A stretch of 64,000 bases of DNA, from the NCBI GenBank assembly GCA_963921795.1, contig OY997645.1:17980365-18044364 (forward strand). Reading direction: 5' to 3'. The position numbers and the translations under genes are program-made. This DNA comes from Nannobrachium achirus (lineage: Eukaryota; Chordata; Actinopteri; Myctophiformes; Myctophidae). A model generated the notes under the pieces. That model was not told the origin of the DNA, searched no databases, and saw only the letters and a list, made by a program, of their open reading frames with translations. Of the stretch, positions 534 through 61,709 are shown piece by piece. The first letter of the stretch is position 1. Each line of letters begins with the position of its first letter.

Positions 534-1068
534 CAATGTTGTTTTTGACAGCAAATTTTGATTTAGTTTTAGTCATAGTCTTTTGAATAAAATCTTTTTT
601 AGTTTTAGTCCTAATTTAGTCACCTGAAAAGTTTTAGTTTCAGTCTAATTTTAGTCGACTAAATATCATACGATTTTATGGCGACTACATCTACAGTTGA
701 TTTAGTCAACTAAAATGTATTTTGGCAGGCCTTGATGGCATCGTAGTGACTGATTTTACACTTGGTTGTGTGCTGAAAATAGCCGATCTACAAGCTCACA
801 ACGCGTCGCAGCGCGACGCGTTGTGAGCTTGTAGATTGCTATTTTCAGCACGCAACACCTGAGAGCAACCAAACATAAAATGACTCTCTTCAGCACTAGT
901 CCCTCCCCAACATTTTAGTCTAGTTTTTATTTTGTTGACGAAATTGTCAATTATATTTAGTCTCAGTTTTAGTCATCACAGCTTAGTTTTTATTTAGTTT
1001 TCGTCAGTGAAAAAAACGCAGTCGACAAACATTTTTCGTCATAATTTTAGTCGACAAAATCAACACTG
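534..1068. mobile_element. hAT-type MITE (family M, 'TTTAGTC'-rich)
   Basis: A 535-bp element bounded by a perfect 8-bp direct repeat gttcaata at 526-533 and 1069-1076. The ends are caatgttgtttttgac on the left and tcgacaaaatcaacactg on the right, and both flanks are full of 'ttttagtc' and 'gactaaa' motifs, so the termini are inverted repeats. There is no coding capacity. An 8-bp duplication and CA...TG ends fit the hAT superfamily. The shared palindrome lies in its right-central part (770-851). Confidence 0.8.
770..851. repeat. Shared palindrome copy 1 (in MITE family M)
   Basis: Near-perfect 82-bp palindrome. Arms run from gtgctgaaaatagc to gctattttcagcac around the centre cgtcgcagcgcgacg. 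The left arm has GCCGATC and the right has GATTGC, a form of GATCTGC with one base lost, so the two arms differ at the characteristic mismatch position. Confidence 0.9.
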
Positions 1069-1076
1069 GTTCAATA

Positions 1077-1592
1077 TTTGTGAAACCCACAGACACGCTA
1101 AACCAATTTCAGCTGCCATAGATGCTTTTTTTGGGGGGGGGGTAAAACTATAGTTTGACGAAGTAGGACATTCATTTATAAATAAAATAAAATAAACATA
1201 AAAGGTTCACTATGCAGCTACAAAGTTTCTGCCAGTCAAAATATATCCGAGGAATAAGAGGGCTGTTCTTTTTGGTAGTATCATACAAATGCGTTTGTTG
1301 GTTTACCTTATTTACCCTGCTGGCTTAAATTACTAAACACGTAACCTCTGTTGTTATTCCCGACCTCCAATGCTGATGCACTTAGACAGCATGCAAATCT
1401 GCTATGATGGTCTGACTGCTGCTGGGTTTGTTTTTGTGTGTGCAACCGTTGGTTGGTCTGATGAAAAGACCACCTGTCATGCTCTGGCCTTTGATAACAT
1501 GATGAGGTCATAGAGCATAGAGTAGACTATGCAGTACAGTTGGTGGGAAGTAGTCCAGGGCCACCACATATTGTGTTTACTGTACTACTGTA
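1077..1592. other. No gene; unassigned sequence
   Basis: Unique-looking AT-rich sequence with a short G run near 1134-1142. No coding exon or repeat terminus was recognised. Confidence 0.5.
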
Positions 1593-2836
1593 GTATAGGC
1601 CAGGGGTTTTCAAAGTGGGTGACGGGGCACCCTGGGGTGCCGCGACAGCAGTCCAGGGGTGCCGCGAGATCATTTGATAATATTTGGAATTAATTTGGAC
1701 ACTTGAAAAAATATTTAGTATTACCCAGGGGGCAAAGGAAGGTGTGCTGCATTTGCCCCGACATAAAAGGTTGTCCACCAGAAATATTATCTATGACCCA
1801 GTAGGATCACAACCTATATGGACAACCCGGTCAATTTGTTCGGAAAAGTTCCAATATGGCCGCCTCAATATTAGCCCCTATTAGTTTTAATGGGGGGTGA
1901 ATAGGGAAGAAATTTAAACTGAGGGATATGTCCACGAAACTTCACAGGTTGATCAATGGTATACATATGAACATTTTTTGTATTGCATGTTTCCATGAAA
2001 TCCAATATGGCCACCACAATATGGCCACCATAATGTAAGGACCCAGAAAATAGGTTTTGCCTCTAACTTCTGAACCAGATGAGCTAGAAACGCAAACTTG
2101 GTGTCTATTTCATGGTGTCTGACCATGGGAGACTCAATGGAATAGCTAATTTTATTATTGGGTGTGTCTGGACCTTTATTGTGCATATTTGCAAGATGGT
2201 GGACTCCCAAAATAGAGCTTTAACATAATTTCTACCATGATTGTTGACTGCTTTTGCAAATACAAGCAATATGAATCCATTTGCTAAGATTTATGGCACA
2301 GAAGGGACTTATACCTGTATTATTCTTGAGTTTGCATGTTGTCAAAATGGCTGTAAACGAGATATTATATTTCCTGTCCGATTCTACTGTATGTAGTTGT
2401 AGCAATGACTTCAGATAAAATCAGAGACCAAAACAATGTATCTTAGAAATTATTTTTTTATTTAAAAAATTAATAAAAAAGAGAGAGATTATCTCAATGA
2501 AATGAATGCAACTGCCTTTTTGGGTCTTTCACACATAGACATGCACATGCTTTCCAACAACTTCAGCTTCAGGGAAATTATAATGAACACATGATTAAAA
2601 CAGGCTGCATTATAATGCAAATAATTGCTAGTCACTATCACTGTCATGTGTACCTATCCTGCTGCATCTTGTCTCCAGTCCTTGGCAACGACACCCCAAG
2701 TAGCATGCAATTCCCTTCTTCGCACATGAACAGTTTTTCTGTCAGCCTTTGATACAGCTACATGATATTGCCTTGTCCATTGATATAGGCCAGGCTGGCT
2801 CTGTAGATGGACAGGGGACTGCCTTCCCATGGCGAC

Positions 2837-2866
2837 AGCATGATATAGGCATCTATATCATGCTGC
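2837..2866. repeat. Small hairpin at the inner edge of the left arm
   Basis: The sequence reads agcatgatata, a short spacer, then tatatcatgct, a perfect small inverted repeat exactly where the long left arm stops matching the right arm. It may mark the junction where the long inverted repeat formed. Confidence 0.6.
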
Positions 2867-2897
2867 CACCCACCTCCTAGACCTTCCAGAGCTGTGG

Positions 2898-3480
2898 GTG
2901 AGAACAGAGCAGGATGCATATCTTCCTATCCATCACATGGTCTCAGCCCTTGGACTCGCACAGTGTCGTGCCCTGCCCTTTATTCACAGCCTGAGTGGCA
3001 GAGATACCACCAGCTATCCCTTTTTCACTGGAAAGAAGGCATGGTTCAAGACCAGCATGGGTCTAGATCTCCCTGCACTTCAGGAGTTTGGTGAAAATTC
3101 CTCTTATTCCCTCTCAGAGGATGTCAAGAATCAGGCTAGAGACCTCACGATAGCTGTATATGCATCAAAAGCTGACCATTCGGAGGACTTTGACCTGGCA
3201 AAGCTGAGAGTGTACAAGTTCCTAAATAACCGATCAACCCTGTTGAAGCTGCTGCCACCTACAGAAAATGCCTTTGGCCTGCACCCCACTCTTGCAGCCA
3301 TAATAGATAAAACTGCACACATCGCGAAGCCAGACATCCCTTGCTTCACTGAATATGGATGGTCTCTCAGTGATGGGAAGGCAGTCCCCTGTCCATCTAC
3401 AGAGCCAGCCTGGCCTATATCAATGGACAAGGCAATATCATGTAGCTGTATCAAAGGCTGCCAGAAAAACTGTTCATGTG
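2898..3480 (+). pseudogene. Captured or relic coding fragment with HSLSGRDTTS motif and Cys-rich end
   Basis: An open frame of about 194 codons lies in the loop and right arm of the long-inverted-repeat element. The first third carries FIHSLSGRDTTSYPFFTGKK, then a helical-looking middle, then LPPTENAF, HIAKPDIP and TEYGWSLSDGK, then a cysteine cluster CSCIKGCQKNCSC. I recall fish and invertebrate transposon-associated proteins with a similar 'HALTGCDTTS' motif followed by a Cys-rich tail, but I cannot name the family. The usual Cys of that motif is Arg here. The frame is cut by the LINE fragment at 3481, after which it continues only through repeat sequence. It has no intact start context, no promoter and no partner gene, so it is best read as a relic of an autonomous element's gene or a captured host exon, not a working host gene. 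The part from 3373 on is duplicated in inverted form at 2725-2830. Confidence 0.55.
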
Positions 3481-60558: not shown

Positions 60559-60562
60559 CTAT

Positions 60563-60819
60563 CGTCGTTGTCGAGCAGAAACCTCGTATCTCCAAGTTTC
60601 AAATTTGTATGTTCTTTCGCAAAGCCAAGCCCTGCTTCATCATACAAGGCCGTCGCTCAAAAGTAGTGAAAACAGCAGATCTACAAGCACACAACGCCTC
60701 GCGGAGCGAGGCGTTGTGTGCTTGTACATCGGCTGTTTTCACTAGTTTAAATCATTCTTAAAATGATAAATGCAAAATGAACGGTTTTGAACATACAGGG
60801 TTTTCACCCGACAACGACG
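60563..60819. mobile_element. MITE family A, copy 3
   Basis: Ends cgtcgttgtcgagcagaaac and ttcacccgacaacgacg; perfect 4-bp duplication ctat at 60559-60562 and 60820-60823. Palindrome in the centre. Confidence 0.88.
60664..60744. repeat. Shared palindrome copy 15 (in MITE A3)
   Basis: Arms tagtgaaaacagc and gctgttttcacta around acaagcacacaacgcctcgc. Left GCAGATC, right CATCGGC, the reverse of copy 2 in the same family and same MITE orientation. Confidence 0.92.
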
Positions 60820-60823
60820 CTAT

Positions 60824-61169
60824 GTCCTATAAAAGGGAAAGGGTTTTACGGGTGGGTGGGAGTAGGAGAGCATTGCAGCCTCCTTGCATACTCTGCGTTG
60901 TCATTATGGGATTAGAATACACCCACTGATTAGGGAAGAGCCGGTCCCCTGTGATCACAAAGGCTTTTTAGTTTGTGCACTGACCTTCAACCTGTAAAGC
61001 AGCCTAATGCTCCGCGGGGAGATAATGGCTCTTATTAAGTGCCTCAAGTCCTTTCTTGTTTAAAGCAGGTGGACTGGGCAAATGAGTTGCCAGCACTCAC
61101 AATATTGAGTGTGACTAAAGGGTGTTATTTACCGTGAATAACGGGGGCGTGCGTGCACTCGCGCACGTG
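60824..61169. other. Non-coding stretch, possible regulatory patch
   Basis: Repeat-free; includes cccactgattagggaagagc, ggctcttattaagtgcctca and agcaggtggactgggc. Conservation is untested. Confidence 0.3.
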
Positions 61170-61293
61170 CTGTGTGTGTGTGTGTGTGTGTGTGTGTGTG
61201 TGTGTGTGTGTGTGTGTGTGTGTGTGTGTGTGTGTGTGTGTGTGTGTGTGTGTGTGTGTGTGTGTGTGTGTGTGTGTGTGTGTGTGTGTGTGT
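61170..61293. repeat. (GT)n microsatellite, host of a hAT insertion
   Basis: About 62 GT units ending exactly where MITE B3 begins; GT repeats resume at 61710. Confidence 0.97.
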
Positions 61294-61709
61294 CAGGGAT
61301 GGGACGATAAGCAAAGACATCTGATAAGCGATATTATCGTTTATCGTGATAAATAACATTCGCGATAATCGTATCGTGGAGATTTAATTTATCGTGATAT
61401 CGTCCTCCTTCATGCACTGGGATCAATTCACCCTTTATTTGCCGAGCTGCATATCCGGTACCACTTAAACCCTCTATAAAAGGTACTTATAATATACGTA
61501 CTTGATACAGTCTTTTTTTCACTCTCTATCAGATGTCTTTGCCAAAAAAATTGCCGATCTACAGCTCTGTGAGCTTGTAGATCTGCTATTTTTTGTTAAA
61601 TCTTCCGCCCCCAGGATAATGGATTTTGATTATCGTGATAACATCATAAATCGCGATTTCTTTTGACACAATAATCGTGATATGAAGTGTTCATATCGTT
61701 CCATCCCTA
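61294..61709. mobile_element. hAT-type MITE family B, copy 3
   Basis: Ends cagggatgggacgata and tatcgttccatcccta. The flanks are gtgtgtgt on both sides, an 8-bp duplication that cannot be told from the surrounding microsatellite. Palindrome inside. Confidence 0.85.
61541..61600. repeat. Shared palindrome copy 16 (in MITE B3, shortened)
   Basis: gccaaaaaaattgccgatct then acagctctgtgagcttgtag and atctgctattttttgtt. Left GCCGATC, right GATCTGC. Confidence 0.88.

What the first reader, a model, noticed from the sequence alone, without database searches (positions are those of the whole stretch)
770..61600. One palindromic module sits inside at least seven otherwise unrelated MITE families
Seen: a 50-107 bp palindrome with arm core AATAGC-GATCTACAAG-CTCACAACGC occurs about 17 times in 64 kb. 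It lies inside elements with unrelated ends: family M (ends caatg/cactg, TSD gttcaata), A (ends cgtcgttgtcgg, 4-bp TSD), B (ggatgggacgata), C (cagtggtgg), D (gaagacccctg, TSD acttaaac), E (cagtggttctcaa, TSD gtgtaaag) and L (gattaatcg type), with split or half copies in O and others. Members without it exist (C1, E1). Known: non-autonomous families normally share only sequence inherited from their own autonomous parent. Inference: the palindrome is either a mobile hairpin that targets other transposons, a sequence passed between families by recombination or template switching, or a common functional module such as a transposase or replication hairpin.
Basis: partly seen in the sequence, partly recalled or inferred. 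Interest (0 to 1): 0.9.

Follow-up and report, generated by a model that had tools for sequence, protein, structure and literature searches.

The report
One hairpin shared by many transposons
A 71-letter DNA hairpin, estimated at hundreds of thousands of copies in one fish-like genome, sits inside about ten otherwise unrelated families of small jumping DNA, so they acquired it rather than inherited it from one parent; in one well-supported case it came as a smaller jumping element nested in a larger one.

Summary
A palindrome, typically 71 bp (33-bp stem, 3-nt loop, one mismatch), occurs 17 times in the window and 110 times in 292 kb from thirty other stretches of the same 1.66-Gb genome: about 4-6 x 10^5 copies by extrapolation. 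An exact 27-mer of it occurs 40,694 times, control 0. Of 127 loci, 100 match 12 seeded flank groups. Between families, identity averages 0.85 over the outer 21 core bases, then falls to 0.42 and 0.25 just outside.

In D, and with eroded ends in B, E and L, the palindrome is the centre of a shared ~200-bp element with TTAA-CCACTT...AAGTGG-TTAA ends. D has 23,756 filled junctions and 19 predicted single-TTAA empty sites (counted, not read): a TTAA-type MITE nested in, and amplified by, a hAT-like MITE. In A, M, G and E2 the palindrome abuts host DNA, with family-specific inverted tips of 6-12 nt. My mechanism there, fold-back capture, is inferred. Independent mobility is not excluded. Novelty: new variant of a known kind, a conserved core shared among non-autonomous families.

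The parts
776..844 (.). palindrome (PAL) in host M (534-1068, 8-bp TSD GTTCAATA)
5042..5112 (.). PAL, 71 bp, in host A (4933-5201, 4-bp TSD ATAT)
11530..11599 (.). PAL, diverged, in V1-type flanks inside element E (left end CAGTGGTTCTCAA at about 11332; right end and TSD not found)
14506..14526 (-). single PAL arm with V2-type flank ending AAAGTGGTTAA
15162..15212 (.). PAL, shortened, in host E2 (hAT-like end at about 15350; TSD not found)
17366..17456 (.). PAL with expanded loop (91 bp) in host B (TSD not found for this copy)
26307..26338 (-). single PAL arm in host B (26061-26422)
27214..27260 (.). PAL, shortened, in host C
46705..46729 (-). PAL arm plus V1 right flank ending GTTAAAGTGATTAA (L copy 1)
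46965..46991 (-). PAL arm plus V1 right flank ending GGGTTAAAGTGATTAA (L copy 2, tandem duplicate)
55059..55078 (+). weak PAL-arm match, no assigned host
55944..56014 (.). PAL, 71 bp, in host A (55872-56121)
56861..57069 (.). V1: ~209-bp element with TTAA left and TTAC (degenerate) right, nested in host D1 (56765-57201, 8-bp TSD ACTTAAAC), PAL inside
56906..56976 (.). PAL, 71 bp, inside V1 of D1
58404..58437 (+). PAL, right arm partly lost, in host C; V2-type flank GGGCTAAAGTGGTTTA downstream
59682..59752 (.). PAL, 71 bp, inside V1 of D2 (host 59545-59993)
60669..60739 (.). PAL, 71 bp, in host A (60563-60819, TSD CTAT); inverted relative to the PAL of A1 by its mismatch
61564..61592 (-). single PAL arm in host B (61294-61709)
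23573..23852 (+). C-family copy without PAL

Best explanation
PAL is a discrete foldback module, typically 71 bp (edges AAAATAGC...GCTATTTT), that each host family acquired once, early, and that then rode on that host's own transposition. Step 1, shown: it is one homologous unit with sharp edges in about ten host families. Step 2, well supported for D, and for B, E and L by shared flanks only: it is the centre of a TTAA-type MITE (V1) that inserted into a hAT-like MITE, and the composite was amplified by the host's ends. C and K carry a second flank (V2) with the same end. Step 3, inferred: in A, M, G and E2, where PAL abuts host DNA and both sides carry 6-12 nt of family-specific inverted sequence, PAL was copied in by template switching and fold-back synthesis on its own hairpin during gap repair, around the founding of the family. 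The founder then amplified.
For: Sharp edge: between-family identity averages .85 over the outer 21 core bases (within-family .91), is .81 at the last core base.42 and .25 at the next two, near chance beyond. Family consensus arms are the same in V1, B and G apart from the mismatch position, the first base of G and the inner end of B; A differs at two more bases, K in the inner stem. TTAA ends and shared flanks; 12 of 16 matches to the end motif (<=3 mismatches) lie within 150 bp of a palindrome, ten mono-nucleotide shuffles give 0-4 matches in all; 21,147 exact TTAACCACTTNAACCC in the genome, control 2. D filled 23,756, D empty with one TTAA 19, controls 0. TSDs of 8 and 4 bp. A with PAL 28,799, without 239. 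Inverted tips: positions 1-4, 6 and 7 outside the core match between sides at .48-.90 against .28-.49 in mismatched pairs; by family A 9-12 nt, M 11 (one copy), B 8 (3 of 5), G 6 (common prefix), E2 6 (one copy). Reading the clusters, each family keeps the same partner on the other side.
Against: No autonomous parent, related species or read empty site was available. The 19 D-empty hits carry 2-3 mismatches and were counted, not read; they could be precise excisions. Of the first 100 listed of 239 A copies without PAL, 15 have exactly one (S)TAG between the flanks, which also fits insertion with a short TSD. A 52-bp PAL (L023:6228-6279) lies beside a left 22-mer unique in the genome, which fits independent mobility. 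Tips are weak or absent in K, in C (4, 4, 0), in two of five B and in the one S copy scored; position 5 of the tip is not above control. In 2 of 11 flank clusters the arms are more diverged than the flank, in one equal. The M test was uninformative (0 without, 6 with). V1 ends are complete only in D.
Confidence: 0.5

Rival explanations
1. PAL is itself a mobile element: a hairpin that inserts into many sites, in MITEs and elsewhere, with a machinery not yet seen, possibly at the centre of palindromic targets or with a short TSD such as TA or CTAG.
For: Sharp identical edges; solo PAL at L023:6228-6279 beside a unique left 22-mer; 27 of 127 loci without an assigned host; 15 of the first 100 listed A copies without PAL have exactly one (S)TAG; compensated arm changes with one stem mismatch kept.
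Against: PAL-less siblings are rare in A and D, not expected if PAL jumped into established families; deletion between flanking short repeats gives the same single (S)TAG, and the other gap peaks (12, 14, 18, 19 nt) look like slippage; many unassigned loci are old or partial; no constant TSD was seen; no transposase was sought.
Confidence: 0.22
2. PAL is a functional cis module (hairpin bound by a host or transposase protein, or a replication/repair hairpin) that raises copy number, so that PAL-bearing derivatives take over each family.
For: PAL-bearing junctions far exceed PAL-less ones: A 28,799 to 239, perhaps 60:1 after allowing for the stricter second pattern, D 23,756 to 19; 11 of 33 stem pairs have changes on both sides, covariation .179 against .111 shuffled and at most .065 slid; a single stem mismatch is kept, at column 9 in 23 of 30 non-K copies and at column 13 in most K rows.
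Against: A founder effect gives the same ratios; arm covariation can come from copying between arms; hosts show three TSD types, so one transposase-binding role is unlikely; C copies without PAL exist.
Confidence: 0.13
3. All hosts descend from one ancestral element that carried PAL and diverged outside it.
For: B, D, E and L share sequence well beyond PAL, and C and K share the V2 flank.
Against: Outside PAL between-family identity is about .25 from the second base on; TSD lengths and ends differ; in D the V1 element sits at a TTAA inside the host.
Confidence: 0.07

Closest known systems
V highly conserved domain of SINEs carried by the MITE MER6 (PMC6887750; abstract and section 2.4 read)
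   Same: A conserved short core shared by otherwise different non-autonomous elements and amplified inside a DNA-transposon MITE.
   Different: V is a SINE body domain, not described as a palindrome in the parts read; that paper treats MER6/MER6A, here about ten host families.
Mobile palindromic GC clusters of yeast mitochondria (PMC4478555; abstract, opening paragraphs and the section on amplification mechanism read)
   Same: Short palindromes that multiply, merge and shuffle; mechanism open.
   Different: Mitochondrial, 42 nt for GC42, with a putative AG target site; PAL is nuclear, 71 bp, inside MITEs.
REP (GTAG/CGTC) palindromes and RAYT transposases (PMC3733652; abstract read)
   Same: High-copy short hairpins, hypothesised miniature transposons.
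   Different: Prokaryotic, 20-40 bp, with an unpaired GTAG or CGTC tag; PAL shows no conserved tag outside its edges.
Angel elements of zebrafish and the palindrome in Tol2 (recalled; the listings showed no paper on them, no passage read)
   Same: Foldback MITE-like sequence in fish, one nested in a hAT element.
   Different: Sequence not at hand, so relation untested.
Nested TTAA-type MITE in a hAT MITE (general knowledge)
   Same: V1 in D fits: TTAA at both ends, single TTAA in the predicted empty site.
   Different: The same central palindrome also occurs without the TTAA element in other families.

Membership tests
TTAA-type (piggyBac-like) MITE, for V1 only | TTAA target duplication with a single TTAA at the empty site | tested here: met
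   D1 TTAA left (56861), TTAC right; D2 TTAA right, left degenerate; empty-site pattern 19 hits, filled 23,756, controls 0; empty loci not read
TTAA-type (piggyBac-like) MITE, for V1 only | inverted terminal repeats | tested here: met
   CCACTTGAACCC left, GGTTCAAGTGG right in D
TTAA-type (piggyBac-like) MITE, for V1 only | shared ends with an autonomous piggyBac or Kolobok element | not tested
   no transposase search was run
hAT MITE, for hosts M, D, B | 8-bp target duplication | tested here: met
   M and D1 perfect; D2 and B2 one mismatch; B3 in a GT run; none found for B1
hAT MITE, for hosts C, E, E2 | 8-bp target duplication | tested here: inconclusive
   ends resemble hAT ends but the scan found no convincing duplication
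hAT MITE, for host A | 8-bp target duplication | tested here: not met
   no 8-bp solution for three copies; 4-bp ATAT and CTAT perfect, ATAT/ATTT
REP/RAYT palindrome, for PAL | conserved unpaired tag next to the hairpin | tested here: not met
   identity falls to .42 and .25 just outside the edge
REP/RAYT palindrome, for PAL | dedicated tyrosine transposase in the genome | not tested
   not searched
Curated structured RNA (Rfam) | score above gathering threshold | tested here: not met
   0 matches in the window; for 740-880 all listed hits are below half their gathering score, best mir-2329 43.6 of 90

The most novel reading that the evidence does not exclude
PAL is a nuclear mobile hairpin, or an amplification-promoting module, that repeatedly turns low-copy transposon derivatives into high-copy MITEs: in the two families with usable counts (A, D) the PAL-bearing form took over, and PAL is present across hosts with 8-bp, 4-bp and TTAA target duplications.
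Probability: 0.18. Interest if true: 0.85.

Novelty: new variant of a known kind. Interest (0 to 1): 0.62.

Why it matters
Conserved cores shared between different non-autonomous families are known for SINEs (PMC6887750). My eight searches of the held open-access papers listed none for MITEs, but their listings were capped, most subscription papers are not held, and Repbase/Dfam could not be searched. The case makes a standing question testable: how new MITE families are born, and whether a hairpin captured at that moment helps them multiply. PAL also lies at the junction of two different families in a local duplication (L018), so it may be a site of ectopic recombination.

Tried and rejected
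The DNA search with a 73-nt palindrome gave nothing (0 candidates; the tool skips very common words), so pattern search was used. Clustering whole flanks by single linkage lumped 80 of 94 loci; replaced by outward flanks. The idea that the A copy without PAL (L015:8262-8475) is a pre-insertion site was dropped: it keeps TTCACTAG of the right tip. The idea that L016:9311-9407 is an empty site of the L006 host was dropped: it matches another repeat. General shuffling of halves between families at PAL was dropped on reading the clusters, with one exception at L018. The M test for PAL-less copies was uninformative (0 against 6). Exact 20-mer of PAL in viral and prokaryote contigs: none. Rfam: none. 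Rows left out of counts: 20 unassigned arms of 160; three local duplicates of 29.
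Full report
Observation. Two 10-mers of the arm occur 25 and 26 times in the window with at most one mismatch, against 4.4 and 2.7 expected; none of 100 shuffles reaches either. A profile from 134 arms found in the window and twenty 10-kb stretches gives 17 loci in the window; on the reversed sequence it gives 4 hits at E<=10 and none at E<1. 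The typical unit is 71 bp (29 of 48 two-armed copies with both edges kept, range 38-91): 8 bp of stem, one mismatch, 25 bp of stem, a 3-nt loop. Seven window copies fold as single-stranded DNA at -27.8 to -41.9 kcal/mol, z -9.4 to -13.6.

Abundance. The window lies in a 1.66-Gb genome of 564 contigs. Thirty 10-kb stretches at fixed positions hold 110 loci in 292 kb, 0 to 11 per stretch (variance/mean 2.3), including some local duplicates; this extrapolates to about 6.2 x 10^5, or 4.1 x 10^5 if scaled by the 11 exact matches among them. The exact 27-mer AATAGCNGATCTACAAGCTCACAACGC occurs 40,694 times, control 0.

Hosts. Reading outward from the core edge, 157 flanks of the 113 loci then held fall into 27 clusters of two or more plus 43 singletons; some clusters are two sides of one family, some are local duplicates. 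Assignment to flank groups seeded by me from the same loci, so that seeds match themselves, places 100 of 127 loci in 12 groups (K 26, A 12, D 9, L/E with V1 flank 8, C 8, E2 8, B 8, G 7, S 6, M 4, P 3, R 1) and leaves 27 unassigned, many old or partial. Since L/E, D and B share the V1 flank, C and K share V2, and P and R are not shown to be MITEs, I count about ten host families (A, B, C, D, E, E2, G, K, M, S), plus one beside a hAT-like end CAGAGGTGGGCAAC at L006 (read). Target duplications are 8 bp for M and D1, near-perfect for D2 and B2, 4 bp for A; none convincing was found for B1, C, E or E2. hAT-like ends of the others are by resemblance, recalled.

Sharp edge. Over arm pairs from different assigned families (140 of 160 arms), identity averages .85 over the outer 21 core bases (.49 at the mismatch position to .98), is .81 at the last core base.42 at the next and .25 after that; within families the same 21 bases average .91. 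The inner stem is lower in both (.30-.79 and .48-.77, ungapped, with K's different inner stem and length changes). Consensus arms of V1, B and G are the same apart from the mismatch position, the first base of G and the inner end of B; A has two further changes, K a different inner stem. So founders of unrelated families carried nearly the same sequence. Within families the arms are less diverged than the flank in 8 of 11 clusters, equal in one and more diverged in two, so slower evolution of the core is not established.

A nested TTAA element. Sixteen window sites match TTAACCACTTNAACCC or its complement with up to 3 mismatches; 12 lie within 150 bp of a palindrome (B, C, D, E, L and 14506), 4 do not; ten mono-nucleotide shuffles give 0-4. 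Aligned flanks show that D, E, B, L006:5018 and L013 share sequence on one or both sides of PAL over about 200 bp, L on one side (V1), while C, K and others share a second flank (V2) with the same end. Both ends are clear only in D: in D1 the unit is 56861-57069, TTAA left and TTAC right. The predicted empty D site with a single TTAA occurs 19 times (9 with 2 and 10 with 3 mismatches, not read) and the filled right junction 23,756 times, both with control 0. The exact end motif occurs 21,147 times, control 2; of 39 listed ends in the first 5.6 Mb of C1, 9 have an exact PAL arm within 140 bp (lower bound, exact matches only). For D this is a nested MITE amplified by its host, the best-supported part of the story.

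Families without the TTAA element. In A, M, G and E2 the core meets host sequence directly. The two flanks next to the core resemble inverted copies of each other for a few bases: positions 1-7 match .71 .48 .90 .69 .40 .58 .54 against .28-.49 in mismatched pairs (position 5 no better than control), with no consistent excess beyond position 8. By copy the tip is 9-12 nt in five A, 11 in one M, 8 in three of five B (2 in the others), a common prefix of 6 in two G (extended by scattered matches in one), 6 in one E2, 0-8 in six D, 0-4 in three C, 0-8 in K, 10-14 in the duplicated L006 pair, 0 in the S copy scored. The A family has 28,799 exact PAL junctions and 239 copies whose flanks lie 0-20 nt apart. 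The second pattern also needs a right-flank motif carried by 3 of 6 sampled A right flanks (cluster 7), so the ratio is approximate. Among the first 100 of the 239, gaps of 0 (15), 12 (13), 14 (9), 18 (9) and 19 (17) stand out. The zero class fits either insertion with a short target duplication or slippage between flanking repeats; the others look like partial deletions.

Structure. On 26 of the 29 71-nt copies (three local duplicates left out; rows turned so that the A arm is left where possible), 11 of 33 pairs have changes on both sides; covariation is .179 against .111 +- .008 shuffled and at most .065 slid; one measure, further pair types, is not above the shuffles (24 against 26.4). The mismatch at arm position 9 (A on one arm, C on the other) is kept in 23 of 30 non-K copies; K (18 of 18) has A on both arms there, but most of its rows have a mismatch at column 13. 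So the palindrome is maintained, by selection on the hairpin or by copying between arms and founder history; the data do not separate these.

Recombination. At L018 a tandem duplication (2,780 aligned bp, 98.2%) ends at the PAL edge: one copy joins a D left half through the PAL (3954-4024) to a B left half, the other keeps the whole D element. The adjoining B halves are only 88.8% alike, so the history is not fully settled. PAL can thus be a junction of ectopic exchange; otherwise partners within families look constant on reading the clusters.

A solo copy. L023:6228-6279 is a 52-bp PAL with the usual edges; its left 22-mer occurs once in the genome at up to 2 mismatches, itself, and neither 150-bp flank matches elsewhere in the sample. 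The right flank could not be tested in the genome. It keeps independent mobility open.

Comparison. The nearest published idea I read is the SINE V domain inside the MITE MER6 (PMC6887750, abstract and section 2.4). Mobile palindromes are known from yeast mitochondria (PMC4478555, abstract, opening and one section) and bacteria (PMC3733652, abstract). The Angel/Tol2 parallel is recalled.

Noticed in passing
L018:834-7073: Tandem duplication (2,780 aligned bp, 98.2%) whose junction is a PAL joining half of a D element to half of a B element.
   Followed up: yes
L015, L022, L024, L025 (e.g. L025:2288-2663): K family (ends CAGGGGCGTCAC...) carries PAL twice, in inverted arms on either side of an E-type hAT-like element (read).
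   Followed up: partly
window 1747-2730 and 3816-4799: Inverted duplication of 985 bp at 98.9% identity.
   Followed up: no
window 46541-47077: ~260-bp tandem duplication (84%) that copied a PAL arm with its V1 flank.
   Followed up: partly
window 51840-52133 and 53122-53479: Two related minisatellite arrays with units around TCCATTTTATGCCCATATATGGAGAT.
   Followed up: no
L006:1-9994; L010:6533-10000; L012:3094-7475: Further local duplications (direct in L006 and L012, inverted in L010) that include PAL loci.
   Followed up: partly
window 17366-17456: PAL of this B copy has a loop expanded by a 10-bp tandem repeat, CGTTGTGACG.
   Followed up: no
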